A DNA stretch of 64,000 nucleotides from Devosia sp. 67-54. Its GTDB lineage: Bacteria > Pseudomonadota > Alphaproteobacteria > Rhizobiales > Devosiaceae. The stretch covers positions 124,001 to 188,000 of the forward strand of contig NZ_MKVA01000009.1 of assembly GCF_001899075.1 (NCBI RefSeq). The letters are read 5' to 3'. Shown piece after piece: positions 33,339 through 63,214 of the stretch. Each line of letters opens with the position of its first letter. The first letter of the stretch is position 1. Both the position numbers and the translations under genes were made by a program. Below the pieces are notes generated by a model, which was not told the DNA's origin, ran no database searches, and saw nothing but the letters and a program-made list of their open reading frames with translations.

Positions 33339-33407
33339 TCAGCCATTGGTGATGGCGAACGGCGCGTGCACGTCGTTGTCGATCGCGAAGGGCGGTGGGT
33401 CGGCGGG
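33339..33407 (-). repeat. C-terminal tail repeat, copy 1
   Basis: Codes for the last 22 residues of secreted protein A. It matches 34078-34146 in all but about seven of 69 bases; 21 of the 22 encoded residues agree. Confidence 0.85.
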
Positions 33408-34070
33408 CTTCGGCTTGGGCGGTGGCGGCGGTGGTGCAGGCGGCGCCGGGTGGGCGATGACCCTGCAGATGAGGCCCATGCGACGGATCGGGCCTTCATC
33501 CCCATCGTCCAGGACGACCGTGCCGAAGACGCCGACGGCGATGGCGCCGCCGCCGCAATCGCGCGTGGCGCTGCCGATTGCTGCACCCCGGCTGAAGCCG
33601 GAGAGCGCCGAATTGGCGGTCTCATAGGTCTGCATGTTGCGGCAGAGCAGCCTGAAGGCATGGACGAGGTTCGCCCCCGACCTTTGGATGCTTATTCCGG
33701 CAGCCGCCATGCCGTCGGGGCATATTACTTCCCCCCAGAAGGCAATGCCGGATTTTTCCGCCTTGCCCGCCACGCCGCCATGCCTGGCCGAGGGGGGAGG
33801 ATCGAGACGCGGCGCCTGGATCTTGGAGCCGAGCAGCCGTCCGCCCTTGGACTGAAGGCATTGCGCCGCGATGCCGTCGAGGTCCTTGTCGGAATTCTCG
33901 TCGATGCCCACGAGCACGTAGCCATCCGGGCACTGCAGCTCGAACGGCACGCCGCCGCCGGCGCCGCCATAATCGTCGGTACGCCCGACCTGCGCGAGAG
34001 CGGCGCCCGCCCACAGCGACAGCAGCGCGGCCAGCACCGGCGCGATGATCCCTTTCGTCGACATTTTCAC
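33339..34070 (-). CDS. Secreted six-cysteine protein A with Pro-rich tail (new family, see findings)
   Basis: A 243-residue exported protein, function unknown. The signal peptide ends near AALAQVG (about residue 26). The core holds three similar units, each beginning with Cys followed by a Gly-containing 'L-x-G-I' strand and ending with a hydrophobic strand and a Cys: LQCPDGYVLVGI...IAAQC, VICPDGMAAAGI...FRLLC, RDCGGGAIAVGV...MGLIC. A linker of nine consecutive prolines and KPK leads to the tail ADPPPFAIDNDVHAPF-AITNG. It is the third gene of a leftward operon, 7 bases after protein B, with AGGA as ribosome site. I know no named family for it. Confidence 0.85.
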   Translation of the reverse strand: MKMSTKGIIAPVLAALLSLWAGAALAQVGRTDDYGGAGGGVPFELQCPDGYVLVGIDENSDKDLDGIAAQCLQSKGGRLLGSKIQAPRLDPPPSARHGGVAGKAEKSGIAFWGEVICPDGMAAAGISIQRSGANLVHAFRLLCRNMQTYETANSALSGFSRGAAIGSATRDCGGGAIAVGVFGTVVLDDGDEGPIRRMGLICRVIAHPAPPAPPPPPPKPKPADPPPFAIDNDVHAPFAITNG

Positions 34071-34077
34071 GTCCTGA

Positions 34078-34146
34078 CTAGCCGTTGGTGATGACGAACG
34101 GCGCGTGCACGTCGTTGTCGATGGCGAATGGCGGTGGGTCGGCGGG
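34078..34146 (-). repeat. C-terminal tail repeat, copy 2
   Basis: Near-identical to 33339-33407. Codes for PADPPPFAIDNDVHAPF and the final five residues of secreted protein B. Confidence 0.85.
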
Positions 34147-34737
34147 TGTTGCCGGCTGGGGCGGCTGGGGCGGCGGAGGCGGCGGGCGATAGGTGGCGCA
34201 GATCAGCCCCAGCGCATTGATGCGGGCGTCGCCGCGGATCAGCAGGCCGCGGGCATAGGAGTCCGGCCCGCAATCGGCAGACCCCGGACTGCCGCCGGCG
34301 CCGCCATTGGACTTCGTCGCCTTGCTGTCGCCCAGGCCCGGCGCCGGCAGGTTGCGGCAGGTGAGCCAGAAGCTGTGCACCAGCCCCACCGCCGATTCGG
34401 TGACGTGGATCTGCTGCACCACCATGCGCCTGGGGCAGACGATCGTGCCGTCGGGATTGAACCGCCCATTGTCGTTGTCGAGGCCGCGGGTCGCCAGCCG
34501 ATAGTGCTTGCCCGTCGGCCAGCCGTCGTGGAGCGCCACGCAGGCGCCGGTGACCATGTCCATGTCCTTGCCCGCCTTGTAGTCGATGGCGACGAGCGCA
34601 TCGCCGGGCCGGCATTCGTCGAGATAGCGCGAGCCCCCCGGCCCCCCGATCGGCTTGGTGGTGCCATCGAAGGCGAGGGCCGGGGCGGCCAGCACCAGGG
34701 CGGCGGCGAGCGCCGGGGCGAAGCGGGAGCAGCGCAT
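34078..34737 (-). CDS. Secreted six-cysteine protein B with Pro-rich tail
   Basis: 219 residues. Signal peptide MRCSRFAPALAAALVLAAPALA. The three-unit cysteine core is DECRPGDALVAI...VTGAC, IVCPRRMVVQQI...FWLTC and ADCGPDSYARGL...LGLIC. After a run of prolines it ends in the same tail as protein A (Ala changed to Val near the end). The frame is open upstream through protein C; ATG 34737 is chosen because it starts a good signal peptide 11 bases after the protein C stop. Likely periplasmic or secreted; function unknown. Confidence 0.85.
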   Translation of the reverse strand: MRCSRFAPALAAALVLAAPALAFDGTTKPIGGPGGSRYLDECRPGDALVAIDYKAGKDMDMVTGACVALHDGWPTGKHYRLATRGLDNDNGRFNPDGTIVCPRRMVVQQIHVTESAVGLVHSFWLTCRNLPAPGLGDSKATKSNGGAGGSPGSADCGPDSYARGLLIRGDARINALGLICATYRPPPPPPQPPQPATPADPPPFAIDNDVHAPFVITNG

Positions 34738-34748
34738 GGCCCGGGCGC

Positions 34749-35693
34749 CTATTTGAGGTCGCCGCCCCAGATCAGGCCGGGCTGCGGCCTGATCACCTTG
34801 CACCAGCCCCGGCCCTTGCGCTCGCAGGCGCTGACGATCACCGTGTCGCCCGCGTCGAAATAGGCGATCTCGGTGTCGCCCCTGTCGGCATAGAGGGTCG
34901 AGGGCTCGCGCAGCACGCGGGCCTTGCCCTTGGGGCCGAAGCTGACCCCGTCCGGCCCGATGCCGACGTCGATCTGCTCCTGCAGGTCGCTGTCGCCGGT
35001 GTCGCCCACATCGGCCGTATCGGGCCCGGCATCGGCGGCGTCGCCCGTGTCGGCGGGAGGAGTGTCGGCGGACTGGTCGGGCGACGAACAGATGAGGCCG
35101 AACGCGGTGATGCCGGTGCCCACGGACTTGCCGAACGCGCCGAGCACGCCGACGGCGTAGGACCCCGACCCCACGATACTGATGCAGCTGATTTCGGAGG
35201 ACGACACCGCGACCGCCGCCGGATCCGGGACGGTCGTGCTGGCCTTGATGATTTCGCGCGGATGACCGTCGGCCTTGCAGATGGCGCGGATGTGGTGGAC
35301 GTGGCTTTGGGCATTCAGCGATACCTCCACGCCGATCATGAAGCCGCCATTGGGACAGACGACCGGGCCGCCGCCGATGATGGTCTTGCACACCGGACTG
35401 CCGCTGCAGGCGTGGCCGAACCCGACCGTGGGAGCGCCCGGCTTGGCGCCGCTCGGCTTGCCGTTGACCAGCGCCTGGCAGACCGGAGCGATCCCCGTCA
35501 TGTTGTACAAGGCGTTCCAGCCCCAGCCGATCAGCGCATCACCGCCCGGGCAGGTCCAGCTGAACGGCGTTCCATCGCCCGCACCGACGATGTTGGTCTT
35601 CGTATCGGCCAGCGCCGGCGGCGCCATGCCCAGCGCCAGGGCGAGCGTTGCGGCGGCCAGCAGCCGGCCCAGGATGTTGTCACCATGCCACAT
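34749..35693 (-). CDS. Secreted six-cysteine protein C with SH3b-like C-terminal module
   Basis: 314 residues. Signal peptide through PPALADT. The three-unit core is WTCPGGDALIGW...APVC, VVCPNGGFMIGV...IRAIC and a looser third unit ending FGLIC, with two extra Cys pairs inserted. After an Asp/Gly/Ala/Thr linker the last ~65 residues match an SH3b-like fold shared with proteins D-F: TLYADRGDTEIAYFDAGD...C...GWCKVI-P--GLIWGGDLK. Such domains often bind cell-wall peptides. ATG 35693 follows GGAGG ideally; ATG 35705 would leave no spacing from its site. First gene of the operon. Confidence 0.85.
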   Translation of the reverse strand: MWHGDNILGRLLAAATLALALGMAPPALADTKTNIVGAGDGTPFSWTCPGGDALIGWGWNALYNMTGIAPVCQALVNGKPSGAKPGAPTVGFGHACSGSPVCKTIIGGGPVVCPNGGFMIGVEVSLNAQSHVHHIRAICKADGHPREIIKASTTVPDPAAVAVSSSEISCISIVGSGSYAVGVLGAFGKSVGTGITAFGLICSSPDQSADTPPADTGDAADAGPDTADVGDTGDSDLQEQIDVGIGPDGVSFGPKGKARVLREPSTLYADRGDTEIAYFDAGDTVIVSACERKGRGWCKVIRPQPGLIWGGDLK

Positions 35694-35751
35694 CGAATCC
35701 TCCATTCCTCGCCCCGTGCCGCGACGCTAGACCGGGCCCCGCCGCGCTGTC

Positions 35752-35769
35752 GTCCACCAGGTGGTGGAC
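35752..35769. promoter_or_regulatory. Inverted repeat upstream of the secreted-protein operon
   Basis: GTCCACCA-GG-TGGTGGAC, perfect 8-bp arms. Its centre is 67.5 bases before the ATG at 35693. Similar repeats sit 64-66 bases before two other secreted-protein genes (59990-60005, 60205-60222). Confidence 0.65.
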
Positions 35770-35862
35770 ATCGGCCCGGGCGCATGGGCCGATGGACGGC
35801 ACGGCCGGCGACCGGACGTGCGGCAGGATCGCTGCTGTGATGAGACGTGCCGGCGCCGCGGC

Positions 35863-36996
35863 TCAGAGCGGCAGCTTGATCTCGCTGGCGAGCCGCACGA
35901 GCTGGGTGCGGCTGTGCCGCCCGGTCTTGTTGAACACCCGGAGCAGATGCGTGCGCAGCGTGCTCATGGCGATGCCGAGCTCCTTGGCGATCTGCTGGCT
36001 GCTGCGGCCGGCGACGACCAGCTCGAACACCCGCCCCTCGGCCGGGGTCAGGTCGTACAGGATGGCGACCGCATCGGTCGCGGCGGTCCAGGGCGCGGCG
36101 CTGTCGGCGATGAACACGGCGGCCACGGCGCCCCGCTCGGCGCCCGTCGCCACCGTGCGCCGCTCGAGCGGCAGCACGTGCACCGAAATGGCGCTGCCGT
36201 CCTTCCGCCGCGCCGGAATGGCGATGCCGCGGCGGCCGAGCTCCACCTCCGGCCGGCCGGCCGTCGCCCGCACCGCTTCCTCCAGCCGTCCGGGCACGAG
36301 GTCGTGCGCCAGGTGCAGCCGGCCGTCGACGCTACGGATCGGATCGGCCTCGCGCAGCATGGCGTCGGCGGCGCGGTTGGCGTGGCGGATGCGGAGATCG
36401 GCATCGACGATCAGCGCGCCCGAGCCGATGACGTCGAAGGCGGCGCGGAAGCTCGCCACCTCCTCGCGCGCCGCGCCGATGAGATTGCTGATGGTCGCCG
36501 CGCGCCGCAGATGCGGCGCCAGCAGGCGCATCTCGTCGAGCTCCTCGCCGGTGATCGGCGGCCGGCTGTGGTGTACGCCCATGCCGAGCGACGCGACGGT
36601 CGTCGGATCGTTGACGAGGCCGATGACCAGCTGGTCGACGATGCCTTGCGGCTGCGACCACTCGGCATACCAGCGATTGTCCGGATGCTTGTGGAAGTCG
36701 TAGACCTGCGACTGGATGATCGGCTCTTCCAGCGGCAGCCGGGCGATGGTGGCGAGCCCGCCCCACAGTTCCGGAATGGCGTCGACATAGTCGCCGGCAT
36801 GCTCGACGAACCAGGGCGGCACGTTGCAGGGCACCTGCACCACCGGGCTCATGTCGGGCAGCCGGTTGATGGCAAGAATGGCGATCTGGAACTGATAGCG
36901 CTGGCGCACGCGGTCGATCGCGTCATGCCAGAGACGAGGCTCGATGGTGGCGTCGTAGATGGCGCCGATCAGCTCGTTGAGAGCGGGGTCAATCAC
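35863..36996 (-). CDS. PAS/LuxR-like transcriptional regulator 2
   Basis: 377 residues, start GTG. The N-terminal sensor opens LNELIGAIYDATIEPRLWHDAIDRV. A helical segment LLAPHLRRAATISNLI leads into a PAS-like part (GALIVDADLRIRHANRAADAML). The C-terminal HTH is a clear LuxR/FixJ type: LTPAEGRVFELVVAGRSSQQIAKELGI then STLRTHLLRVFNKTGRHSRTQLVRL. The input is unknown; there is no receiver or autoinducer domain. It lies directly upstream of, and in the same direction as, the secreted A-B-C operon, 169 bases before it. Confidence 0.88.
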   Translation of the reverse strand: MIDPALNELIGAIYDATIEPRLWHDAIDRVRQRYQFQIAILAINRLPDMSPVVQVPCNVPPWFVEHAGDYVDAIPELWGGLATIARLPLEEPIIQSQVYDFHKHPDNRWYAEWSQPQGIVDQLVIGLVNDPTTVASLGMGVHHSRPPITGEELDEMRLLAPHLRRAATISNLIGAAREEVASFRAAFDVIGSGALIVDADLRIRHANRAADAMLREADPIRSVDGRLHLAHDLVPGRLEEAVRATAGRPEVELGRRGIAIPARRKDGSAISVHVLPLERRTVATGAERGAVAAVFIADSAAPWTAATDAVAILYDLTPAEGRVFELVVAGRSSQQIAKELGIAMSTLRTHLLRVFNKTGRHSRTQLVRLASEIKLPL

Positions 36997-37103
36997 CGTC
37001 CGGTCCAGGCTTCCTTCGGATGTAAAGAGAATAAGCGCGATGCACCGCTGTCAACCCCTTGCCGCGAGCCGCGCCAGGGATGAGCGGCGCCGGACCGGCG
37101 CGG

Positions 37104-37448
37104 CTAGAGGATCGAGGTGAAGAGCGACAGCATCGTCCGCACGCCGCTTATGTCCGAGGCGTTCGGGCCGGGCGGGGTGCTGCTCGGCGGCGCGATCGAG
37201 CGCAGCACCAGCACCACGATCAGATACAGGCAGCCGAACGGCGCGAACAGGATGAAGGTGAGCGGCCACAGGTTCGATTCCTGCGTGTAGGCGAAGATGC
37301 ACCAGGCCGCCGCCGGCGCCGCCAGCCACAGCGGCGCAAGGAAGGCGGCCCACCAGCCTTCGCGCCAGGCGACGAACAGGCAGGCGATTTGCAGGATCAG
37401 ATAGGCGGGCGTGGCCAGCATCAGCGCGAGCCCGATGATCACTCCCAT
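37104..37448 (-). CDS. Small membrane protein of unknown function
   Basis: 114 residues with three hydrophobic helices (about 2-24, 29-50 and 57-83) and a short Pro/Ser-rich cytoplasmic or periplasmic tail. ATG 37448 follows GAGGGG. The frame is open further upstream but without a membrane start. I do not recognise the family. Confidence 0.65.
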   Translation of the reverse strand: MGVIIGLALMLATPAYLILQIACLFVAWREGWWAAFLAPLWLAAPAAAWCIFAYTQESNLWPLTFILFAPFGCLYLIVVLVLRSIAPPSSTPPGPNASDISGVRTMLSLFTSIL

Positions 37449-37710
37449 GGCGGTCCCCTCTTTGCGCCTGGCCACCCTACCAGCCGCGCATGACCGATCC
37501 GTCGCCGGCATGCCGCGGAATGTCCCGTCGGCGTTAAGACCGCGGCAACCAGGCGGCGGGCCGGCAAGGGCCGCTTGCGCTAGCCGCCCACCTTCCATGT
37601 GCTGGGACCTCGTCCGGCGCACTGGATCACCGTTCTCACGCCCGGCGGCATGGAGGGAGTCTTCGTAGACATGGCAGCCGGCAACTATGCCATCCCGCAG
37701 CCCGTGGCGG

Positions 37711-38502
37711 CTACGGCTGCTCCGGCTTGCGCACGCAGATGGCGAAGCGGTCCGAGGTCAGCCGCTCGGCGGCCCTGAGCAGCGACATCTTGCGCGCCTG
37801 CGCGAAGTGGATGTCGAACAGCCCGCGATCGATGACAGGGTGCTCGAACCCGGCCGCCAGCAGCAGGTCGACCACGCGCTCGGCCGGCATCTGCCCCGAA
37901 AAATACACCTGCGTGCGGATGCGCTCGAGCCGTTCGATCCACTGCGGATCCATGCGCGGCCTGGCGGCCCTGCCGGTGAGGCGGCCCCAGCGCTCGCGCA
38001 GCTGCGCGACCCAGCTCTTGCGGCCCATATTGCCGTCGACGATCAGCAGCCGTCCCCCGGGCTTCAGCAGCGCGAACCATTCGGCGAAGGCCGCCGGCGG
38101 GTCGACCAGCGTCCACACCAGATGGCGGTTGACGATCACGTCGAAGCTCGCGCGCGGCTCCATGGTGTTCTCCGCGTCGCGCATGATGAAGCGGATGTCG
38201 CTCTTGCGCGTCGCCGATTTCGCCCGCGCGCGGTCCAGCATGGCCTCCGACCAGTCGGCGCCGGTGACCCTGTAGCCGAGGTCGTTCATCAGATGGGAGA
38301 TCACCCCCGTGCCGCAGGCGAGATCGAGCGCGGCACGGCCGCGTCCTTCCCCCAGATGCTTGCGGATCAGCCGATGCCAGCCGCGCCGCTCGGCCTCGGA
38401 AAAAACTTCGTGTCCGACCTGCTGGTCGAAGGTCGCGGCCCGCATCGACCAATACTCGCGGATTTCGTCGCGAATTGAATAGTTTGATGCCGGCGCATCC
38501 AT
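37711..38502 (-). CDS. Class I SAM-dependent methyltransferase (UbiE-like)
   Basis: 263 residues. SAM-binding motif I is ALDLACGTGVISH (about 58-70); acidic Asp of VTGADWSEAMLDRA follows, then RDAENTMEP and motif VVNRHLVWTL-type strand, with LLKPGGRLLIVDG as the post-III strand. The acceptor is unknown. It is divergent from a FecBCD-type importer across 115 bases that hold one large dyad, so both may answer to the same metal regulator; modification of a metallophore or of an imported complex is a guess from position. Confidence 0.85.
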   Translation of the reverse strand: MDAPASNYSIRDEIREYWSMRAATFDQQVGHEVFSEAERRGWHRLIRKHLGEGRGRAALDLACGTGVISHLMNDLGYRVTGADWSEAMLDRARAKSATRKSDIRFIMRDAENTMEPRASFDVIVNRHLVWTLVDPPAAFAEWFALLKPGGRLLIVDGNMGRKSWVAQLRERWGRLTGRAARPRMDPQWIERLERIRTQVYFSGQMPAERVVDLLLAAGFEHPVIDRGLFDIHFAQARKMSLLRAAERLTSDRFAICVRKPEQP

Positions 38503-38549
38503 CTTCGTCCTACCTCGACGTCCCTAACAGACTGGAATCACTCTAAAAG

Positions 38550-38580
38550 ATAAAAGTTGACTCTGGTAGTCCGCTTTTAT
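38550..38580. promoter_or_regulatory. Nested dyad operator between methyltransferase and importer genes
   Basis: ATAAAAG (38550-38556) and CTTTTAT (38574-38580) are a perfect 7-bp inverted repeat. Inside it GACT (38559-38562) and AGTC (38568-38571) form a second one around CTGGT. TTGACT at 38557-38562 may be a -35 element. A repressor overlapping the promoter is the simplest reading; the half-site spacing (17) is like NikR-type operators, but the sequence is not. Confidence 0.6.
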
Positions 38581-38582
38581 AC

Positions 38583-38615
38583 GGCGCCCCTGTAGCAAGC
38601 TTTCCGAAGGGCGCC
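38583..38615 (+). promoter_or_regulatory. 5' leader hairpin that could hide the ribosome site
   Basis: GGCGCCC (38583-38589) can pair perfectly with GGGCGCC (38609-38615), which contains the Shine-Dalgarno GAAGGG of the next gene. The loop is 19 bases. No known riboswitch consensus was recognised. Confidence 0.4.
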
Positions 38616-38617
38616 AA

Positions 38618-39751
38618 ATGAAAATCGCACATCTGGTGGCCGGGGCCATGTTCGCCCTCGCCGCCATCCTCGCCGGACCCGCATCCGCCGAGGGATTCAC
38701 CGTCACCGACGTCGCCGGGCGACAGGTGTCGTTCGACAAGCCGGTCGAACGCGTCATCCTGGGCGAAGGCCGCATGATCTATGCGCTCGCCGCGCTCGAA
38801 ACCGACGATCCGTTCGGCAAGGTCGTCGCCTGGCGCAACGACCTGTGGACCACCGACCTCGACCTGTTCAACGCCTACGTCGCCAAATATCCGAAGGTGA
38901 AGGACCTGCCCTTCCTCGGCAATCTCACCGACGGCACGCTGCAGGCCGAGACCGTGGTCAATCTGCATCCCGACGTGATGCTGCTGCCCATCGGCAACAA
39001 GACCGCCGCCGACGAGGTCGGCCTCGAAAAGATGCTCGACGGCATCGGCGTCAAGATCGTCTACATCGACTTCCGCGAACACATCCTCAAGAACACCGTT
39101 CCGAGCCTGCATATTCTCGGCCAGTTGTTCGGCAAGGAGCAGCGCGCCGACGCCGTCGCCACCTACTGGCAGGCGCAGCTCGACCGCGTGACCGACGTGC
39201 TGAAGGCGGCCAACCCGCCCAAGCCGAACGTCTTCATGTATCGCGCCGCGGGCCTCGCCGAATGCTGCGGCACCTTCGGCACCGACAATTACGGACTGAT
39301 GGTCGATCTCGCCGGCGGCCACAACATCGGCGCCGACTTCCTGCCCGGCTATACCGGCACCATCAACCCCGAGCAGGTGATCGCCTCCAACCCCGACATC
39401 GTCGTCGTCACCGGCTCGAACTGGACGCACTCGGCCAAGGCCGCGGGCTTCGTCACCGTCGGCCCCGGCGCCGCCGCCGTGGCCGAGCAGAGCCGCGCCG
39501 CGCTCGCCAAGCTGATGCAAGAGCCGGCCTTCACCGGCTCCAAGGCAGTGGCCAGCAAGAACGTGCATGCCATCTGGCATCAGTTCTACACCAGCCCCTA
39601 CCAGTTCGTGGCCATCCAGCGGCTCGCCAAGTGGTTCCATCCGGATCTGTTCAAGGATCTCGACCCCGACGCGACCTTCAAGGACTTCTCCGACAAGTTC
39701 CTGCCCCTGCCCTACAGCCCCGGCTACTGGGTCTCGCTCGAGGGGAACTGA
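38618..39751 (+). CDS. Periplasmic binding protein of a metal-complex ABC importer (FecB/BtuF-like)
   Basis: 377 residues. Signal peptide to GPASA (residue 24). Family opening FTVTDVAGRQVSFDKPVERVILGEGR, then NLHPDVMLLPIGN, and NPEQVIASNPDIVVVTGS before the long connecting helix typical of type III binding proteins. Ligands of the family are ferric siderophores, haem, cobalamin or, in some, molybdate; nothing here decides between them. First gene of a tight three-gene operon. Confidence 0.88.
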   Translation: MKIAHLVAGAMFALAAILAGPASAEGFTVTDVAGRQVSFDKPVERVILGEGRMIYALAALETDDPFGKVVAWRNDLWTTDLDLFNAYVAKYPKVKDLPFLGNLTDGTLQAETVVNLHPDVMLLPIGNKTAADEVGLEKMLDGIGVKIVYIDFREHILKNTVPSLHILGQLFGKEQRADAVATYWQAQLDRVTDVLKAANPPKPNVFMYRAAGLAECCGTFGTDNYGLMVDLAGGHNIGADFLPGYTGTINPEQVIASNPDIVVVTGSNWTHSAKAAGFVTVGPGAAAVAEQSRAALAKLMQEPAFTGSKAVASKNVHAIWHQFYTSPYQFVAIQRLAKWFHPDLFKDLDPDATFKDFSDKFLPLPYSPGYWVSLEGN

Positions 39752-39754
39752 GCC

Positions 39755-41610: not shown

Positions 41611-41679
41611 CTGTCAGCATTCGCCGTCATTGTATCTCAGGTTAAGGCGCCGCGGTCCGTTCCGTGCGAGCTTGCGGGC

Positions 41680-42027
41680 ATGCAACAGCTTTCAGCCGCC
41701 TCCACGCCGCACCGGCGCGCCTCCCATATCGGCCACGTCCACAATCGCGCCGCGCGGCTTGCGGTGCGCGACATCCAGCAGCATCTGAGCGAATGGCAGC
41801 ATACCGCGGCGACGCTGCGGGCGGCGCGGTTCCACAGCCGGAACGATCCGTCCCGCGCCAGCGCCCGCGCCGCCGAGATGCTGCCGCTGGTCGTCGCCGA
41901 CCGCATCGAGCTCGAGGCACGCCTGGACGGCCTCGAAACCGCCGTCGCCACCCACTCCCTGACGCGCGACATCCGGCGGGCCCTCGATCGGCTGCATGCG
42001 GACCTGCAGCAATTGATCATCGACTAG
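41680..42027 (+). CDS. Possible small hypothetical protein
   Basis: 115 residues, rich in Arg, Ala and His, mostly helical (LAVRDIQQHLSEWQHTAATLRAARF; RRALDRLHADLQQLIID in parts). No recognised domain and no strong ribosome site. The regular hydrophobic spacing in the second half and third-position G/C favour a gene. The overlapping opposite frame is a less plausible Ser/Arg-rich text. Confidence 0.4.
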   Translation: MQQLSAASTPHRRASHIGHVHNRAARLAVRDIQQHLSEWQHTAATLRAARFHSRNDPSRASARAAEMLPLVVADRIELEARLDGLETAVATHSLTRDIRRALDRLHADLQQLIID

Positions 42028-53716: not shown

Positions 53717-53724
53717 GGATATCC
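53717..53724. promoter_or_regulatory. Short palindrome in the nan/oxidoreductase divergent promoter
   Basis: GGATATCC, with CATATG overlapping its left side and TCGTA/TACGA arms (53700-53704 and 53731-53735) around it. Weak compared with the operators of the other GntR loci. The true site may be elsewhere in 53632-53754. Confidence 0.3.
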
Positions 53725-53754
53725 TTCAAGTACGATACAGGATCGAGAATCCGA

Positions 53755-55706: not shown

Positions 55707-55729
55707 TCGCCGACAGGCCGGCCCGCGCG

Positions 55730-56869
55730 CTACACGGCCGACCGCAATGTGCTCGCGAGCCGCACCAGCCCCGCACGTCGCTGCTGGCCGGTCTTTTCGA
55801 GCAGATGCCGGGTATGCGATTTCAGCGTATTGGGTGAGATCGAGAGCGCGTGGCTGATCTGCTGGTTGTCCCGGCCGTCAAGGATCAGCTCGAATATCCG
55901 CGCCTCCGCCGGGGTGAGGCTGTAGAGCACGGTCGCGGCGTCGAGGACGTGATGGGGATCTTCTCCCCGCTCGGCGATGAACACCGCAGCGACGGTCTCG
56001 CCAGGCACCTCGGATCGCGCCGACCGGTCGGTGAGCGGCATGACATGCACGACGAACGGCTCGCCGTCGGCACGCGTCCCCGGGATGGCGATGCCGCGGC
56101 GGCCGAGCGCGATATCGCCTTCGGCGGAGGCGAGGATCGTGGTGTTGAGAGCGCCATGCACCACTTCGCCATTGATCTGCAGCCGGCCGAACCGCTCGGC
56201 CAGCGGATCGCCGTTCGCCATGACGTCACGCGCCGCCGGATTGGCATGCACGATGTTCGCATCGGCATCGACCAGCACGACGCCGGTGCGCACCGCATCG
56301 ACGACGGCCTCGAACATTTTGCGCTTGTGCCGCTCCTCTTCGAGGATGCCGCCGACCAGCGCCGCCCGCCGCAGGTGCGGAGCCACGACGCGCAGGCCGG
56401 CCAGCACGTCCGGGGTGATCGGGCCGGCGTCCCGATGGCGGCCGAGGCCGATATTGCCGACACGGAAGCGGTCGCGCGTCAGGATGATGGCGACGCTGTC
56501 GATGATCCCGTTGGGCTGGGCCAGGTCGATGTAATATTTGTTGGCGTCCCTGGCCTTTTGATCGACGGCGCCCAGCACGTTGACCGGCTCTTCGAGCGGC
56601 AGGCCCTCGATCCGTTCCCGGCCGCCCAGCAGCTGGATGAGCTCGGCATTGTATTCGGGCTGCGCCATCGCCGCCGCCCACTCATCCGGGATGTTGACCA
56701 GAACGGACAGCGACGCGGTTTTCAGGCGCAGATCGTGCAGCGCCATCATGACGTTGGCGAGCCGGAAATGCTGCCGCACGCGGTCGAGCGCCTCGGGCCA
56801 TTTGTCGGGATCGACGACGGCGTCGTAGATCGCGCCGATCAGCTCGACGATCTGGGGATCGACACCCAT
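55730..56869 (-). CDS. PAS/LuxR-like transcriptional regulator 3
   Basis: 379 residues. Sensor start IVELIGAIYDAVVDPDKWPEALDRV; VVAPHLRRAALVGGIL; PAS-like GVVLVDADANIVHANPAARDVM; C-terminal LuxR HTH LTPAEARIFELILDGRDNQQISHALSI then NTLKSHTRHLLEKTGQQRRAGLV. Closest in layout to regulator 2. It lies in the right-hand secreted-protein region but is separated from those genes by the ICMT-like gene. Confidence 0.88.
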   Translation of the reverse strand: MGVDPQIVELIGAIYDAVVDPDKWPEALDRVRQHFRLANVMMALHDLRLKTASLSVLVNIPDEWAAAMAQPEYNAELIQLLGGRERIEGLPLEEPVNVLGAVDQKARDANKYYIDLAQPNGIIDSVAIILTRDRFRVGNIGLGRHRDAGPITPDVLAGLRVVAPHLRRAALVGGILEEERHKRKMFEAVVDAVRTGVVLVDADANIVHANPAARDVMANGDPLAERFGRLQINGEVVHGALNTTILASAEGDIALGRRGIAIPGTRADGEPFVVHVMPLTDRSARSEVPGETVAAVFIAERGEDPHHVLDAATVLYSLTPAEARIFELILDGRDNQQISHALSISPNTLKSHTRHLLEKTGQQRRAGLVRLASTLRSAV

Positions 56870-57041
56870 CGGCTTAGGCCCTTGCCGCGCTGGGCCGGCC
56901 CGTTGACTCCGTCATGTTCATGCGGCGGGCGCAGCCGCAATCGACACCATGCATATTCCGCCTGCCCTCGAGGACGACGGAATCTACAATAGTCTCGCAC
57001 CCGAAAGGCTGCGATAGACAATGACAAAATTGATTACCGCA

Positions 57042-58328
57042 TCACGCCGCCCGGGCTCTCTGCCTGGAGATGCGCGCGAACAGCCCGTCGCGGGCGACAA
57101 ATTGCGCATAGTCGCGATAGACGGGGTCGCGCCCCAGATGCCGCTCCTCGGTCCTGGCGCGCAGGAAATAGATCAAATTCACGCCGCCCAGCAGCAGGCA
57201 GGACTGCACCGCCTGCTGCCATCCCGCGCCGGCGACAAACGGCACCGAAATCAGCCACCAGCTGAGGTTCTTGCACAGATAGGCCGGATGCTTGGTCCAG
57301 CGGTAGGGGCCGTTGGTGATGATGCCGCGATTGGTGAGGTTGGAAAAGCGCAACCCGAACGCCGCGGTGGCCCACACATAGACGAACAGCAGCAGCAGGA
57401 TCGCGCTGCCCCACGCCACATAGATCGGCGGCCACGCCGCGAAGACCTTGCCCCAGTAGAGATTGTCCTGGTCGTAGGGAAGATATTGGCCGGTAACGCT
57501 GTTGAACGGCGGGTAGCACAGCAGACAGACGACCCAGCCCGCGACGCTCGGCTCGGCCGAGCGGATATGCGTGTCGAGCAGCCGCAGGGTCAGCACATAG
57601 GCGATGCCCGCCAGCAGCACGTCGAAGAAATAGAAGAGATCGAGCAGCCGGCTGAAGACGGTTTCGAAGCCGTCGAGCTCGAAGTAATGCGGGTTCGACC
57701 ACATGTCCGCGAGGTCGCCGACGATGAAGCCGAACATCAGCGGCAGGAAGAAGCCCTTCACCAGCCAGCCGAGGGCGTGCTGGCGAAGCATCGTCCAGTC
57801 GGCGGGCGGCACCCCGGCCAGCAGCGCCGGGAGCTGCGCATAGGCATCATTGGGATCGGCCTGCCGGCGATCGACATAGGCGATGTAGAATGGCGCTATG
57901 ACGATCAGCGCCGGCAGGCAGCCGAGGGCGGCCTGCCTGAACGGTTCGAACGAGGCGGCGGCATAGACCGGAAGCAGGCTGTAGGCCGCGGCCAGCGCCC
58001 CGATGGTGAGCCAGAAGCCGGCAAGCTTCTGGCCGACGCGCAGCAGGTCGAGATCGCGGAGCGCCTCGCTCTGCAGCCCGTAGCGTTGGCCGCCGAGCCG
58101 ATGCGCCAGGGCGTCGACGGCGATCATCGTCCCGGCGACCGCCAGCATCACCACCACGGCTTTCAGCCAGCCGGGTGCGAGCCATGCGTGCAGCAGGGGA
58201 ATGACGATCAGCGCCGCGGCGACCCCGCCCGCACCGACCCAGCCGCTGACCGCCGATCGTGGTCGGCCGGTCGCGACGATCGGCAGATGCACCAGCGCGT
58301 CACGGGACGGTGTTGTGGTCTCGGCCAT
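57042..58328 (-). CDS. Membrane protein with C-terminal ICMT-like (phospholipid/isoprenylcysteine methyltransferase) region
   Basis: 428 residues with about nine helices. The last ~110 residues carry the ICMT/PEMT pattern: ITNGPYRWTKHPAYLCKNLSWWL (SAM-site HPAY) and FLRARTEERHLGRDPVYRDYAQ (the Arg/Glu pair RxxxEE). The first ~300 residues are extra helices not found in plain ICMT proteins, with a P-type cytoplasmic loop (AYAQLPALLAGVPPADW). A lipid or small-molecule methyltransferase is likely; the substrate is unknown. Confidence 0.75.
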   Translation of the reverse strand: MAETTTPSRDALVHLPIVATGRPRSAVSGWVGAGGVAAALIVIPLLHAWLAPGWLKAVVVMLAVAGTMIAVDALAHRLGGQRYGLQSEALRDLDLLRVGQKLAGFWLTIGALAAAYSLLPVYAAASFEPFRQAALGCLPALIVIAPFYIAYVDRRQADPNDAYAQLPALLAGVPPADWTMLRQHALGWLVKGFFLPLMFGFIVGDLADMWSNPHYFELDGFETVFSRLLDLFYFFDVLLAGIAYVLTLRLLDTHIRSAEPSVAGWVVCLLCYPPFNSVTGQYLPYDQDNLYWGKVFAAWPPIYVAWGSAILLLLFVYVWATAAFGLRFSNLTNRGIITNGPYRWTKHPAYLCKNLSWWLISVPFVAGAGWQQAVQSCLLLGGVNLIYFLRARTEERHLGRDPVYRDYAQFVARDGLFARISRQRARAA

Positions 58329-58355
58329 CGCACCTGCGACCTGTCCTGGTTGACG

Positions 58356-59933
58356 TCAGTCCGATCCCGCTCCTGAACTCGACGCCCCACCGCCGCTGCT
58401 GGCGCCCCCCGAGCTCGAGGCTCCCCCGCTGGCGCCAGAGCTCGACTCGCCACTGGCGCCGGACGAGCTCGAGCTGCCGCTGGAACCGCTGCTCCCCGAA
58501 CTGCTGGCCCCGCCGGAGCTCGATGCGCCGCTGCTGCTTGCACCCGAGCTCGATGTGTCGGAGCTGCCGCCATCGTCGCCCGGCGGACACGATTGCGGCG
58601 TGTCGCTGGGTGCATCGCAATTGTCCGATCCAGCGCCGCTGGAACTTGCACCGGAGCTCGACGCACCACCGCTGGAGCTCGACGAACCGCTTGAACCGCT
58701 GCTGCCCGAACTGCCGCTGGCGCCGCCGGAACTCGACGCTCCACCGCTGGCGCCCGAGCTCGACTCGCCGCTGGCGCCGGAGCTGCTGGCCCCGGAGCTG
58801 CTGCTGGCCCCGGAGCTGCTGCTGGCCCCCGAACTGCTGCTGGCGCCCGAGCTCGATGCCCCACCGCTGGCGCCGGAGCTCTGGCTGCCGGACGAGCTCG
58901 AGCTGCCGCTGGAACCGCTGCTCCCCGAACTGCTGGCCCCGCCGGAGCTCGATGCGCCGCTGCTGCTTGCACCCGAGCTCGATGTGTCGGAGCTGCCGCC
59001 ATCGTCGCCCGGCGGACACGATTGCGGCGTGTCGCTGGGTGCATCGCAATTGTCCGATCCAGCGCCGCTGGAACTTGCACCGGAGCTCGACGCACCACCG
59101 CTGGAGCTCGACGAACCGCTTGAACCGCTGCTGCCCGAACTGCCGCTGGCGCCGCCGGAACTCGACGCTCCACCGCTGGCGCCCGAGCTCGACTCGCCGC
59201 TGGCGCCGGAGCTGCTGGCCCCGGAGCTGCTGCTGGCCCCGGAGCTGCTGCTGGCCCCCGAACTGCTGCTGGCGCCCGAGCTCGATGCCCCACCGCTGGC
59301 GCCGGAGCTCTGGCTGCCGGACGAGCCGGAGCTGCCACTTGAACCACTGCTGCCAGAGCTGCCACTGCTGCCCGAACTGCCGCTAACGCCCGAGCTCGAC
59401 GCACCGCTGCTGCTCGCGCCGGAGCTGGACGCACCGCCGTTACTTGCGCCGGCGCCCGAACTTGCCAGGCCGGCGCCGCCGGATCCACTGCCGCTCGGGC
59501 TGCCTGCGCCCGTATCGGCCCCCTTGCCGAAAATATCGAAGCTCGTGCTCGGGGTCGCGGCGGTCGAGGCTGACCCCGGCGCCTTGGCGGCAACGTCGGC
59601 GACCAGGGTCTTGGCCGCGGCCTTCAACCCCCTGTCGTCGATGGCGTTGGTGAGAAACCCCAGGGCCTGCAGCGCATCCTGGTAAACCCGGCGCGAATGG
59701 CGGCCTTTGTCGAGGCTCGCCGCGAGCGTGTTCAGAACGGTGACGATCTGCGCATCGGTGGGATGGGCGAACTGCAGATACATCTGCACCGCCTCGGCGC
59801 AACTCCCGCCTGCGTGCGCCGGGCAATAGGTCAGCAGCGGGTTTTGCGACGCCTGAAGCTGCGTGACCCCGATCGAAGCCGCCGTCGCTACCCCGACGAC
59901 AGCAATTGCGGCCAGTCCCTGCTTCAGATTCAT
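58356..59933 (-). CDS. Exported Ser/Gly/Ala-rich repeat protein
   Basis: 525 residues, function unknown. Signal peptide MNLKQGLAAIAVVGVATAA and a ~110-residue folded-looking domain (YCPAHAGGSCAEAVQMYLQF, two Cys; helical to about 130). Residues ~140-525 are almost only Ser, Gly and Ala in SSGASSSG-type units, interrupted by two identical Cys-containing segments GSDNCDAPSDTPQSCPPGDD. A 429-bp stretch is duplicated in tandem without a mismatch. ATG 59933 follows GGAG. It probably forms an extended flexible stalk on the cell surface. Confidence 0.85.
   Translation of the reverse strand: MNLKQGLAAIAVVGVATAASIGVTQLQASQNPLLTYCPAHAGGSCAEAVQMYLQFAHPTDAQIVTVLNTLAASLDKGRHSRRVYQDALQALGFLTNAIDDRGLKAAAKTLVADVAAKAPGSASTAATPSTSFDIFGKGADTGAGSPSGSGSGGAGLASSGAGASNGGASSSGASSSGASSSGVSGSSGSSGSSGSSGSSGSSGSSGSQSSGASGGASSSGASSSSGASSSSGASSSSGASSSGASGESSSGASGGASSSGGASGSSGSSGSSGSSSSSGGASSSGASSSGAGSDNCDAPSDTPQSCPPGDDGGSSDTSSSGASSSGASSSGGASSSGSSGSSGSSSSSGSQSSGASGGASSSGASSSSGASSSSGASSSSGASSSGASGESSSGASGGASSSGGASGSSGSSGSSGSSSSSGGASSSGASSSGAGSDNCDAPSDTPQSCPPGDDGGSSDTSSSGASSSGASSSGGASSSGSSGSSGSSSSSGASGESSSGASGGASSSGGASSGGGASSSGAGSD
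58458..59325. repeat. Perfect 429-bp tandem duplication inside the Ser-rich gene
   Basis: Every base compared between about 58458-58896 and about 58887-59325 agrees with an offset of 429 (143 codons). Shorter GCTGCTGGCCCCGGAG units repeat inside each copy. Confidence 0.9.
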
Positions 59934-59989
59934 CGATGAGCTCCAGCTTCTTTGCCGGAATTCGTAGCGATGAATACCCGCGGGCCGCA

Positions 59990-60005
59990 TCATCCCTAGG
60001 GGTGA
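59990..60005. promoter_or_regulatory. Inverted repeat upstream of the Ser-rich gene
   Basis: TCATCCCTAGGGGTGA: 14 of 16 positions are symmetrical. Centre 64.5 bases before the ATG at 59933. Belongs with 35752-35769 and 60205-60222. Confidence 0.6.
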
Positions 60006-60045
60006 GACGGCGCCGAAGCCGGGCAGCGCCCGATCCGCGAGGTGC

Positions 60046-60186
60046 CGCGCGCCGTGCCAGCACGTATTTGCGCACGGACAGTCCAAGGCCGGGCTGCTGC
60101 TCGTAGCGTACCAGCGGCAGATGCGCGTCGAACACGTCCTGCGCGTGATCCATGTCGCCCCGCTTGACGCTCTCGCACACCGAGGT
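60046..60186 (-). pseudogene. Remnant of a DapA-family gene (C-terminal end only)
   Basis: One frame reads SVKRGDMDHAQDVFDAHLPL then VRYEQQPGLGLSVRKYVLARR, the well-known C-terminal helices of dihydrodipicolinate-synthase-like proteins. The text upstream (above about 60190) is unrelated, and downstream the similarity continues only in another frame (ARHLADRALPGFGAV). It is not a copy of the lyase at 48453-49370, whose C-terminus differs. It lies between the two divergent promoters of the Ser-rich and secreted-protein genes. Confidence 0.65.
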
Positions 60187-60204
60187 GCGTCGGCGCGATC
60201 GTGA

Positions 60205-60222
60205 GTCACCTAAACAGGTGAC
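60205..60222. promoter_or_regulatory. Inverted repeat upstream of secreted protein D
   Basis: GTCACCT-aaac-AGGTGAC, perfect 7-bp arms. Centre 65.5 bases before the ATG at 60279. Confidence 0.65.
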
Positions 60223-60278
60223 GAAAGAGCTGTGAAACCGGGCTAGCGTTTTTCGGTCCCACGCGAGAGGCCGCAAAC

Positions 60279-61196
60279 ATGCATCGATCGGTTGCGACGT
60301 TCATGATCACCTGCCTGGCCCTGCTTGGGCCATGTGGCGCGGCGTCATCCGTCCTCGCCGCCGAGACCAGGCATCTTGGCAACACCGATGGCAAAGCCTT
60401 TACCGCGGCCTGTCCCGATGGCCTCGGGATCATGGGATTTGCCTACAACTACAGCGACGCCCAGTTGCTGGCCGTCGCGCCGCTGTGCCGCCAGGTCGAG
60501 GCCAACGGCAATGCGACCGGCATCGTCCCCAAATTGGGCAAGCTCAAGGGGGCGGCGGGCGGCAGCGGCGGCGAGCCCATCCTCTGCACCAATGACCAGG
60601 CGGTGAGGGGCCTCCAGGTCTACCTGACCAAGAGTACCTCGATCTTTGCTTTCCGGCCGGTTTGCGACGGACCGGGCGGGCCGGTTACCGCCCGCACTTA
60701 CTCGCTGCCCTACGACAACGCGCACCCGCCCTCGACCTCGCACGCCGGCGTCGACTGCGGCAGCCATTTCTACACCACGGCGCTCGTCGGAACCTACAAG
60801 GACACGGGATCGCAGGCGAACACGGGCATCCTGAGCATCGGCCTCGTCTGCCAGAGGGAAGGCGAAGCGCCGGCCGCCGCGTCAGGCAAGGCCGACGATA
60901 CCGGCGCAGCCGAGATCGGCGACGATCTGACGGTCGAGCATGACGGGCCCGCCGCCGGCGGCATCCAGCTCGAGATCGATCCGGGCGGCGGCGGCAAGGA
61001 CAGGCCCAGCTTCGCCGTGGCGCCGACCACCATCTATCAGACACCGGCCGGCAAGGAGATCGCCTATCTCGACCGGGGACAGAAGGTCACCATCGTCGAA
61101 TGCGCGGATGACGAGAATGGCAAGCCTGGCGGGGAGGATTGGTGCCAGATCAGCAAGCCGAAGAAGGGCTACGTCTGGGGCCCCGACCTGCACTAG
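60279..61196 (+). CDS. Secreted six-cysteine protein D with SH3b-like module
   Basis: 305 residues. Signal peptide to VLAAE. Three-unit core: AACPDGLGIMGF...APLC, ILCTNDQAVRGL...FRPVC, VDCGSHFYTTAL...IGLVC. A Gly/Ala/Asp linker leads to the SH3b-like end: TIYQTPAGKEIAYLDRGQKV, then C...DWCQISKPKKGYVWGPDLH. First of three same-direction paralogues. Confidence 0.85.
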   Translation: MHRSVATFMITCLALLGPCGAASSVLAAETRHLGNTDGKAFTAACPDGLGIMGFAYNYSDAQLLAVAPLCRQVEANGNATGIVPKLGKLKGAAGGSGGEPILCTNDQAVRGLQVYLTKSTSIFAFRPVCDGPGGPVTARTYSLPYDNAHPPSTSHAGVDCGSHFYTTALVGTYKDTGSQANTGILSIGLVCQREGEAPAAASGKADDTGAAEIGDDLTVEHDGPAAGGIQLEIDPGGGGKDRPSFAVAPTTIYQTPAGKEIAYLDRGQKVTIVECADDENGKPGGEDWCQISKPKKGYVWGPDLH

Positions 61197-61274
61197 CAGG
61201 GCCCGACAAAGAGCGCCCGCGGCAAACCGCAGCCGGGGCGTGACCGATCATGGCGGCATGAACGAGGTTTCGCG

Positions 61275-62252
61275 ATGACGCAGAAAAGATGGCTGGTGCG
61301 GCTGCTGACGATCGCCGTTGCCATGTCGGCGGGCGCGCTCGCTCCCGCCGCCGCGCAGACCTTCCGCACCAACGAGGTCGGCGGGCCCGGCGGCGCCGCG
61401 TTCTCCGATTCGTGCGGCGCCGGCGACGTGCTGATTGGAATCAATTTCCGGGCCGGAAAGGCTCTCAACACAATCGGTCCGGTTTGCTCGCCCGCGCAGG
61501 GGGGCAATATCGTCGGCACGCCCTATGGTCTCCATACCTGGGGCACGTCTCCCAAGGCGACAGATGCTTTTTCGCCCTTCGCCTTAGCCGACGCCGCCTG
61601 GTGTCCCACCGGCATGGCTGTGCAAAGCCTCAAGGTCGGCGTCGATGGTCACGACGACGTCCGCGGCTTCAGCATTTCCTGCCGAAACATGGCGACCGGC
61701 GAGATTAAGCTGGACGCAAACAACAGTTACGCCGGTGGCGTCACCGCCCGCATCGGTGTCGCTCCCTGCGGCTCCGGCACGATCGCCACTGGAGTCATCG
61801 GCGGTCACGGCGCCCTGATCGACCGCCTCGGGCTGATCTGCAGCAGGTTCCAGGATCAGAACGGCAAGCTGCTGCCCGTCGTGGGCGCCGGCGGCGTCCT
61901 GCCCAAGGACAAGCCGGTGCGCGCCGTGGGCAAAGCCGTGGGCACCGGTGGCGTCCTGCCCAAGGACAAGCCCGTGCGCGCCGTGGGCAAAGCCGTGGGC
62001 ACCACGGCCCCGGGGCGCACGCCGGGCGAGGTCGACAATGGCGGCGGAGACAATGGCGGCGGCAAGGGTGGCGGCAACGGCCAGGCCGTCGTGGGGGCGG
62101 CCATCTACGACGCGCCCGACGGCACTCGGATCGGCGAGCTCTATGCCGGCACGCCGGTGACCATCACCGAGTGCGGCAAGCAGTTCGATGGCTGGTGCGA
62201 GATCAGTCGTCCGAAAAGCGGCTGGGTCTGGGGCGAGGACCTCGGCCGATAG
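61275..62252 (+). CDS. Secreted six-cysteine protein E with SH3b-like module and internal repeat
   Basis: 325 residues. Signal peptide to PAAAQT. Core: DSCGAGDVLIGI...GPVC, AWCPTGMAVQSL...FSISC, APCGSGTIATGV...LGLIC. The linker holds two exact copies of GGVLPKDKPVRAVGKAVGT, then a Gly/Asn/Asp run. SH3b-like end: AIYDAPDGTRIGELYAGTPV, C...GWCEISRPKSGWVWGEDLG. Confidence 0.85.
   Translation: MTQKRWLVRLLTIAVAMSAGALAPAAAQTFRTNEVGGPGGAAFSDSCGAGDVLIGINFRAGKALNTIGPVCSPAQGGNIVGTPYGLHTWGTSPKATDAFSPFALADAAWCPTGMAVQSLKVGVDGHDDVRGFSISCRNMATGEIKLDANNSYAGGVTARIGVAPCGSGTIATGVIGGHGALIDRLGLICSRFQDQNGKLLPVVGAGGVLPKDKPVRAVGKAVGTGGVLPKDKPVRAVGKAVGTTAPGRTPGEVDNGGGDNGGGKGGGNGQAVVGAAIYDAPDGTRIGELYAGTPVTITECGKQFDGWCEISRPKSGWVWGEDLGR
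61890..62003 (+). repeat. Two tandem 57-bp units in the linker of protein E
   Basis: 61890-61946 and 61947-62003 encode the same 19 residues. The related gene for protein F keeps only a fragment (KAVGKAVKTTG). Confidence 0.88.
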
Positions 62253-62287
62253 CCGAAGGCCGGATCGACCGGCGGGATGCGGAGCGC

Positions 62288-63214
62288 ATGGTGAATTTGC
62301 CAAGGCTGTCAGCAATCGTCGTCACCCTCGCCGGCGTGACGTTCTCTCCCGCGACGCAGGCGCAGTTCATCCGCACGCTGCCGGACACCCTCGCGCCGGG
62401 CGGGACGAGCGGTGGCGGGTTCCGCACCCAATGTCCCGACGGCACCATCCTCGCCGGGGTCAATGCCTCGTTCGGCGCCGACATGAATTCGATCGCCGGG
62501 GTCTGCCGGAAGTTCGAGAACGGGCACTATGTCGGCAATTTGATCCCGCTGGAAACCAGGGGCAGGCCCAACGACAAGCATGGCCAGGCCAGATGTCCCA
62601 CGGTGGTGCAGGGGATGTGGGTCGGCATTTCGGGCGCCGGTTCCAGTCTCGTCCACCACATCGAGCTGATCTGCGGCAACCTCAAGAAACGCACCGTCGA
62701 GCCGTCCCCGATCATCGACACCGCGACGTTCGGGCTGCTCACGCATGGTGGGGAAGCCTTTGCCACGGTCGCTGCCGATTGCGGACCGGGCGCGTTCGCC
62801 ATCGGCCTGCAGGGCACCTCCGGTTCGCTGGTCGATTCGGTCGGCATGATCTGCGGACGGTTCGACGACACGCCGGCATCCAAGCCCGGCGGCATAAAGG
62901 CAGTCGGCAAAGCCGTCAAAACAACCGGAGCGGGGGACACTACCGAGCCGTTGCCGCCTGGCGTCGTCGACAACGATGACGGTGGCAACGACGGCGGCAA
63001 CGGCAAGGGGTTCCGGCAGTTGACGGCTGGCGGCGGCAAGGGTTCGGCCAATACCGACACGACGATCTACGACCAGCCCGAGGGCAGCGACGTCGCCTAT
63101 CTGAGCGCCGGCGACCGCGTCACCATCGTCCAGTGCAACCAAAAGGTCGCCAACTGGTGCGAGATCAGCACGCCGAGGCACGGCTGGGTCTGGGAACCCG
63201 AGCTCGACCATTGA
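62288..63214 (+). CDS. Secreted six-cysteine protein F with SH3b-like module
   Basis: 308 residues. Signal peptide to TQAQF. Core: TQCPDGTILAGV...AGVC, ARCPTVVQGMWV...IELIC, ADCGPGAFAIGL...VGMIC. SH3b-like end: TIYDQPEGSDVAYLSAGDRV, C...NWCEISTPRHGWVWEPELD. An upstream in-frame start at 62171 would overlap protein E and lacks a signal peptide at the right place, so ATG 62288 is used. Confidence 0.85.
   Translation: MVNLPRLSAIVVTLAGVTFSPATQAQFIRTLPDTLAPGGTSGGGFRTQCPDGTILAGVNASFGADMNSIAGVCRKFENGHYVGNLIPLETRGRPNDKHGQARCPTVVQGMWVGISGAGSSLVHHIELICGNLKKRTVEPSPIIDTATFGLLTHGGEAFATVAADCGPGAFAIGLQGTSGSLVDSVGMICGRFDDTPASKPGGIKAVGKAVKTTGAGDTTEPLPPGVVDNDDGGNDGGNGKGFRQLTAGGGKGSANTDTTIYDQPEGSDVAYLSAGDRVTIVQCNQKVANWCEISTPRHGWVWEPELDH

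What the first reader, a model, noticed from the sequence alone, without database searches (positions are those of the whole stretch)
33339..63214. A new family of six exported proteins with a threefold cysteine pattern, in two loci
Proteins at 33339, 34078, 34749, 60279, 61275 and 62288 all have a signal peptide and three units of the form C-x(3)-G-x-x-L/V-x-G-I ... hydrophobic strand-C (six core Cys; the third unit starts DCG or PCG in most and ends LGLIC-like). I infer three disulfide-closed beta-blades with pseudo-threefold symmetry, as in beta-prism or beta-trefoil lectins. C-terminal modules vary: SH3b-like in four, a shared Pro-rich tail in two. I know no named family with this layout.
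Basis: partly seen in the sequence, partly recalled or inferred. Interest (0 to 1): 0.8.

Follow-up and report, generated by a model that had tools for sequence, protein, structure and literature searches.

The report
Disulfide-stapled bacterial beta-prism lectin family
Six neighbouring bacterial genes make exported proteins built, by prediction, like plant and animal sugar-binding "beta-prism" lectins but with a pair of cysteines in each of the three faces, a mix that sits between two known lectin families and is not covered by the family models tried here.

Summary
In detail: six paralogues in two three-gene sets (33339-35693 minus, 60279-63214 plus), a seventh elsewhere in the genome, six invariant cysteines in three equivalent units. 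The guess of a pseudo-threefold beta-prism is supported: AlphaFold2 on the P0005 core gives pLDDT 87.9 and pTM 0.86, with the same strand and Cys pattern in each unit, and Foldseek's 50 listed PDB matches are jacalin-related lectins (best E 4.5e-7). Family profiles align to bacterial jacalins (hhalign 93.9%) and to VMO-I domains (74.9%; five or six of six Cys in register, by alignment mode). No Pfam or NCBIfam model reaches its cut-off on the six. So a named family with this layout exists (VMO-I), but this is a separate, patchy family, with relatives in Kaistia, Bradyrhizobium and Cupriavidus fused to CAP or proteinase-fold domains. The jacalin sugar motif GxxxD survives in three of six window proteins, in the units where banana lectin has it. 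Best explanation: exported, disulfide-stapled glycan-binding lectins, probably LuxR-linked in this genus. Fold nearly certain; disulfides and sugar binding inferred; SH3b anchoring uncertain.

The parts
33339..34064 (-). P0001: exported beta-prism-like protein, core about 33459-33989, Pro-rich tail ending DNDVHAPFAITNG; no GxxxD motif
34078..34737 (-). P0002: exported beta-prism-like protein, core about 34171-34671, similar Pro-rich tail; GxxxD in unit 1 (GKDMD)
34749..35693 (-). P0003: exported beta-prism-like protein, core about 35073-35603, C-terminal SH3b-like tail (41 of 59 identical to the seventh paralogue's tail); first lectin gene of set 1
35863..36996 (-). LuxR-type regulator (GerE E 2.7e-12, weak PAS hits), 169 bp upstream of P0003 on the same strand
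60279..61196 (+). P0004: exported beta-prism-like protein with SH3b-like tail; first lectin gene of set 2; no GxxxD
61275..62252 (+). P0005: exported beta-prism-like protein, core 61356-61847 (structure predicted), linker with a 57-bp tandem repeat, SH3b-like tail; GGPGG in unit 1 and GxxxD (GALID) in unit 3
62288..63214 (+). P0006: exported beta-prism-like protein, core 62366-62863, SH3b-like tail; GxxxD (GSLVD) in unit 3
63299..64000 (+). LuxR-type regulator (runs past the window; whole frame L014 1300-2508, 43% identical to the LuxR protein at 35863 over 368 aa), 84 bp after P0006; true start may be downstream. The part inside the window alone has no Pfam hit

Best explanation
The six are exported lectin-like proteins whose core is a single beta-prism I domain: three faces around a pseudo-threefold axis, each carrying one Cys pair placed as in VMO-I, and loops of the jacalin type (GG loop, GxxxD). 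In the oxidising periplasm or outside the cell each Cys pair would form a disulfide that staples one face. At least some of P0002, P0005 and P0006 would bind a hexose (mannose-type most likely) through the GxxxD and GG loops, without metal; the other three have changed loops and probably another sugar or none. Tails (SH3b-like or Pro-rich) would hold the protein at the envelope or in the matrix. Two gene sets beside LuxR-type regulators would express groups of these lectins for adhesion, aggregation or matrix building. Shown by computation: paralogy, threefold units, predicted fold, motif positions, gene layout. Inferred: disulfides, sugar binding, anchoring, regulation, role.
For: AF2 core model pLDDT 87.9, pTM 0.86; long strands E14-19/E24-33/E37-48, E79-82/E87-96/E102-111, E132-137/E143-151/E155-163. 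First Cys (residues 20, 83, 138) comes one residue after the first strand, second Cys (44, 109, 162) is the eighth residue of the third strand, in every unit. Foldseek PDB: 104 chains at E <= 0.001; the 50 listed are jacalin-related lectins by title or, for some, by recall. A model of P0006 (mean pLDDT 53.4; core blocks 45-82; six rows, all of proteins also in the first alignment, so not independent) returns jacalin-related lectins first and the Vibrio biofilm-matrix protein Bap1 at rank 14. PDB sequence search with the 15-row profile: 17 of 17 hits at E <= 10 are jacalin-type lectins, best banana lectin E 2.8e-4, best stretch unit 1 only. hhalign, one pair each: bacterial jacalins 93.9%, E 1.6e-7; bacterial VMO-I domains 74.9%, E 2.6e-5. 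GxxxD at the same register in unit 1 in 9 of 15 rows, unit 2 in 0, unit 3 in 4; of five further rows counted, the same-genus copy has it in unit 3, L018 and L041 in units 1 and 3, L021 in unit 1, the seventh paralogue nowhere. Banana lectin has GDVVD and GKFLD in stretches aligned to unit 1 of the profile; GXXXD and GG loop as mannose site: PMC4059138 passages; two GXXXD sites in Malay banana lectin: PMC7804308 passages. LuxR neighbours at both sets and at the same-genus relative.
Against: No experiment. GxxxD is intact in only 3 of 6 window proteins and absent from the seventh. No curated model is passed by any of the six. With the six-row alignment alone the PDB sequence search gave only weak hits (best E 0.076), 9 of 14 of them jacalin-type lectins and 5 unrelated. 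SH3b hits are sub-threshold and that part of the full-length model is not confident (pLDDT 40-53). The seventh paralogue has no such LuxR gene in its 14-kb locus; among the nine named loci (some short) only Bradyrhizobium has a weak one (27%); in the same-genus relative the LuxR gene is convergent with the lectin gene. So the LuxR link is not general. Listed Foldseek rmsd values are 3.3-7.4 A.
Confidence: 0.62

Rival explanations
1. Beta-prism scaffold without sugar binding: the proteins are envelope or matrix structural proteins that use the prism for protein-protein contacts, and the GxxxD remnants are fossils.
For: Three of six window proteins and the seventh paralogue lack GxxxD, and unit sequences vary widely; very long branches between paralogues in a weakly supported tree.
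Against: GxxxD is kept in 3 of 6 window proteins, and in unit 1 in 8 of the 9 named relatives of the alignment, which is hard to explain without a ligand.
Confidence: 0.23
2. Glycan- or wall-targeting module of antagonistic or wall-remodelling secreted proteins: the core aims an effector domain, and the window proteins are stand-alone forms.
For: Relatives fuse the core to CAP domains (L018, L020-L022, L034, L035) and to a cysteine-proteinase-fold domain (L033, AIM3/BBC1_C E 2.5e-15); weak SH3_3 hits in the window and in Cupriavidus.
Against: No enzymatic domain is hit in the six window proteins. Immunity-like partners were not searched for.
Confidence: 0.12
3. Another threefold fold (beta-trefoil) or an unrelated Cys-rich fold.
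Against: The listed fold matches (50 rows in each) and the 17 sequence hits are beta-prism lectins, apart from Bap1, which also has a beta-prism (recalled).
Confidence: 0.03

Closest known systems
VMO-I / VMO1 (Pfam PF03762, PDB 1vmo)
   Same: Three repeats with a Cys pair per repeat at corresponding positions: of the six Cys, five align with bacterial VMO-I domains without realignment, six in the realigned output as I read it. Beta-prism, three repeats of about 53 residues and four disulfides are described for VMO1 (PMC9363672, passages read).
   Different: No DDTA loop in any of 15 rows (present in VMO-I); first-unit Cys span 25 instead of 32-33 residues; jacalin-like GGxGG and GxxxD loops; no window protein passes the Pfam cut-off (only P0001 is hit, 12.7 of 25 bits).
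Jacalin-related lectins (Pfam PF01419; banana lectin, Heltuba, Mevo lectin)
   Same: Predicted beta-prism I fold, GG loop, GxxxD in units 1 and 3, colinear profile alignment 93.9%; one distant relative, L018, passes the Jacalin cut-off (23.2 against 22 bits, a 26-residue stretch of unit 3).
   Different: A Cys pair in every unit, absent from the cores of the three bacterial jacalins compared; exported with envelope-type tails; no window protein is hit by the Pfam model.
Bap1, secreted biofilm-matrix protein of Vibrio cholerae with a beta-prism (recalled)
   Same: Exported bacterial protein; structural match at rank 14 for the second model (E 7.7e-4); a working analogy for adhesion or matrix (PMC3161981 seen in a search listing with abstract start).
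   Different: Different architecture; a weak match to a weak model.

Membership tests
VMO-I (PF03762) | Passes the curated Pfam score | tested here: not met
   P0001 12.7 of 25 bits, no hit for the other five; among the 15 cores 9 have weak hits, best E 2.6e-4; best full-length relative L021 20.1 bits
VMO-I (PF03762) | Three repeats with a Cys pair each in the same register | tested here: met
   hhalign A6 to A8: five of six Cys pairs without realignment, six with it as read from the printed alignment
VMO-I (PF03762) | Acidic DDTA-N loop in each repeat | tested here: not met
   DDTA in 0 of 15 rows; present in two bacterial VMO-I domains and hen VMO-I. That this loop defines the family is my reading of those sequences
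Jacalin-related lectins (PF01419) | Passes the curated Pfam score | tested here: not met
   none of the six window proteins is hit; one relative, L018, passes
Jacalin-related lectins (PF01419) | Beta-prism I fold | tested here: met
   by prediction only:
Jacalin-related lectins (PF01419) | GG loop plus GxxxD sugar-binding loop | tested here: inconclusive
   GxxxD in P0002 (unit 1), P0005 and P0006 (unit 3); not in P0001, P0003, P0004; GGxGG-like start in P0001, P0002, P0005, P0006 by eye
Jacalin-related lectins (PF01419) | Binds mannose or galactose | not testable with these tools
   needs a binding assay
Bacterial SH3 domain (PF08239), tails of four | Passes the curated Pfam score and folds as SH3b | tested here: inconclusive
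   E 8e-5 to 0.12 in three of four, none over 27 bits, none in P0003; full-length model not confident there

The most novel reading that the evidence does not exclude
The family is a sequence bridge between two beta-prism groups: VMO-I (Cys-paired blades) and jacalin lectins (GG and GxxxD loops). It aligns with both, while the two did not align with each other in the small test made here, so it would argue that animal egg-coat VMO-I and plant/animal jacalins share one ancestor, and that bacteria keep a disulfide-stapled lectin of that ancestral type.
Probability: 0.35. Interest if true: 0.66.

Novelty: new variant of a known kind. Interest (0 to 1): 0.5.

Why it matters
Some jacalin-type lectins are studied as antivirals (PMC7804308); a bacterial version with a Cys pair in every blade would be a natural stabilised scaffold. 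The family also gives a sequence link between VMO-I, whose main physiological function is called uncertain (PMC9363672), and true lectins, and names directly testable sugar-binding residues. For the bacterium, it points to a set of seven diverged surface lectins, six of them in two gene sets beside LuxR-type genes.

Tried and rejected
Beta-trefoil: rejected because the listed fold matches are beta-prism proteins. One known curated domain taking all six: not found in Pfam or NCBIfam, and PHROGs gave no match at E <= 0.1. Phage or plasmid origin: no relative in viral contigs, no plasmid record for the P0005 core, only CAP-domain matches in 3 plasmids for the Cupriavidus fusion protein. The candidate at C5:80028 (E 0.08, one stop) was read and looks unrelated. 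Viral fold library: no match at E <= 0.001. A first scan of genome contigs with P0005 alone found nothing; the second used the profile of distant relatives. The tree has weak support and long branches and is used only for the remark that paralogues are very diverged. Papers looked into for VMO-I or bacterial prisms and not used further: PMC6299612, PMC9989928, PMC10769870 (passages).

The bridge claim rests on a two-row VMO-I and a three-row jacalin alignment, so the low VMO-I to jacalin score (0.5%) is a weak negative; tries to enlarge both from plasmids found nothing. A fourth jacalin locus, L055, was left out. With only the eight close paralogues (A2) the links are weaker: jacalin 23.6%, VMO-I 4.9%. 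VMO-I is not among the 50 listed fold matches of either search.

The rarity figures are lower bounds: in the listed rows at most nine first-look candidates per genome were scored, and the samples overlap.
Full report
What is there. The window holds two tight gene sets. On the minus strand a LuxR-type gene (35863-36996) is followed by three lectin-like genes with gaps of 169, 11 and 13 bp (34749-35693, 34078-34737, 33339-34064). On the plus strand three lectin-like genes (60279-61196, 61275-62252, 62288-63214; gaps 78 and 35 bp) are followed after 84 bp by another LuxR-type frame at 63299 (gaps counted from those coordinates). Signal peptides were judged by eye. The six proteins are paralogues with six invariant core cysteines. 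A seventh lies on another contig, C5:892664-893629, between frames that look like aat and DUF2155 (my reading, not searched).

The three units. In a 15-row alignment of the six cores with nine relatives from named genomes, six Cys columns are invariant. Counting both Cys, the span is 25 residues in 13 of 15 first units and 12 of 15 third units; second units span 27-33. Profiles of the three units align to one another (E 6.6e-9, 9.2e-6, 6.6e-5), and 0 of 60 column-shuffled controls reached each score.

Fold. AlphaFold2 on the P0005 core with the 15-row alignment gives pLDDT 87.9 and pTM 0.86. The three units show the same three long strands; the first Cys follows the first strand by one residue and the second Cys is the eighth residue of the third strand, in each unit. 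Foldseek against the PDB gives 104 chains at E <= 0.001; the 50 listed are jacalin-related lectins, best Heltuba, E 4.5e-7, TM 0.69 by the query and 0.77 by the target. A full-length model of P0006 from six rows (all of proteins also in the first alignment) is poor, mean pLDDT 53.4 and pTM 0.50, core blocks 45-82, but its core shows a similar strand pattern; 15 chains match at E <= 0.001, led by jacalin-related lectins, with Bap1 at rank 14. The SH3b-like tail was not confidently modelled. I had no coordinates, so Cys-Cys distances could not be measured.

Sequence relatives. The 15-row profile finds 17 PDB sequences at E <= 10, and all 17 are jacalin-type lectins, led by banana lectin at E 2.8e-4, mostly through unit 1 (that horcolin, ipomoelin, griffithsin, SALT and the Parkia lectins are jacalin-type is recalled). 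The six-row profile had given 14 hits, best E 0.076, of which 9 are such lectins and 5 are not. Single cores reach Pfam VOMI weakly in 9 of 15 rows and Jacalin in 5 of 15; one relative outside that set, L018, passes a cut-off (Jacalin, 23.2 against 22 bits). To test both links I took bacterial VMO-I domains (two copies in one genome; 1 of 249 genomes over the cut-off) and bacterial jacalins (4 of 249 genomes; three of four used). hhalign gives 74.9% (E 2.6e-5) to VMO-I and 93.9% (E 1.6e-7) to jacalins, colinear over about 130 columns, but 0.5% between VMO-I and jacalin (E-values for one pair each). Five of six Cys fall on VMO-I Cys without realignment, six in the realigned print as I read it. 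The VMO-I rows are genuine: their profile finds hen VMO-I 1vmo at E 6.5e-25. With the eight close paralogues alone the links fall to 23.6% (jacalin) and 4.9% (VMO-I); A2 itself aligns to the distant relatives at 98.9%, E 3.7e-17.

Sugar-binding motif. Relative to the second Cys, G at -10 and D at -6 (GxxxD) occur in unit 1 in 9 of 15 rows, unit 2 in 0 and unit 3 in 4. In the window: P0002 in unit 1, P0005 and P0006 in unit 3; P0001, P0003 and P0004 have none. Five rows outside that alignment were counted too: the same-genus copy (unit 3), L018 and L041 (units 1 and 3), L021 (unit 1), the seventh paralogue (none). In one search two stretches of banana lectin that align to unit 1 of the profile carry GDVVD (first repeat) and GKFLD (last repeat). 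The role of the GG loop and GXXXD in mannose binding is described for ZG16p (PMC4059138, passages read), and two GXXXD sites for Malay banana lectin (PMC7804308, passages read).

Distribution. Matches at E <= 0.001, own genome included: 2 of 19 in the genus, 6 of 397 in the order, 2 of 385 in the class, 3 of 398 in the phylum; an earlier search with the full-length profile gave 3 of 61, one of these through the SH3-like tail only. The order is that of Kaistia: contig lengths in G402 and G275 equal those of Kaistia adipata and K. defluvii records. One scan of named genomes gave nine loci: Kaistia (2), Bradyrhizobium, Cupriavidus (2), one Hyphomicrobiales MAG (2 loci), a Nitrospira MAG and an Enterovirga MAG. 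In Kaistia and Cupriavidus the core precedes a CAP domain, in Cupriavidus followed by a weak SH3_3 hit, and in Bradyrhizobium a cysteine-proteinase-fold domain.

Regulators. P0007 is a LuxR-type protein (GerE E 2.7e-12). Its homologues of 39-48% identity in the genome include three more on the window's contig: the gene directly after set 2, one about 1.5 kb beyond P0006 on the other strand, and one about 3.4 kb before P0004. The same-genus relative in G005 has one (43%) beside its lectin gene, convergent with it. The seventh paralogue's 14-kb locus has none, and of the nine named loci only Bradyrhizobium has a weak one (27%). I take the link as likely within this genus and not general; no statistic was computed.

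Reading. I judge the beta-prism fold about 0.95 likely, sugar binding by at least one of P0002, P0005 and P0006 about 0.65, one disulfide per blade about 0.8, and wall anchoring by the SH3b-like tails about 0.35.

Noticed in passing
58356-59933 (-): Exported-looking Ser/Gly-rich protein of about 525 aa with a 429-bp tandem repeat (2.1 copies, 98% matches), next to set 2 on the opposite strand. No Pfam match and no NCBIfam match near its cut-off.
   Followed up: partly
61880-62003: 57-bp tandem repeat (2.2 copies, 95%) in the linker of P0005, encoding GGVLPKDKPVRAVGKAVGT twice.
   Followed up: partly
55742-56863 (-) and L014 2675-3847 (-): Two more LuxR-type genes of the same family near set 2, so four such genes lie on this contig within about 30 kb.
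   Followed up: partly
33342-33416 and 34081-34149: P0001 and P0002 share a nearly identical C-terminal peptide ending DNDVHAPF(A/V)ITNG, found in no other place of 19 genomes of the genus; function unknown.
   Followed up: yes
L033 3818-4720: Bradyrhizobium agreste appears to carry a second protein with a GGPGG...C start just upstream of the core fusion protein.
   Followed up: no
   Followed up: no
27270-33294: A run of genes that reads like an Mrp-type Na+/H+ antiporter operon just before set 1 (my reading of the translations, not searched).
   Followed up: no
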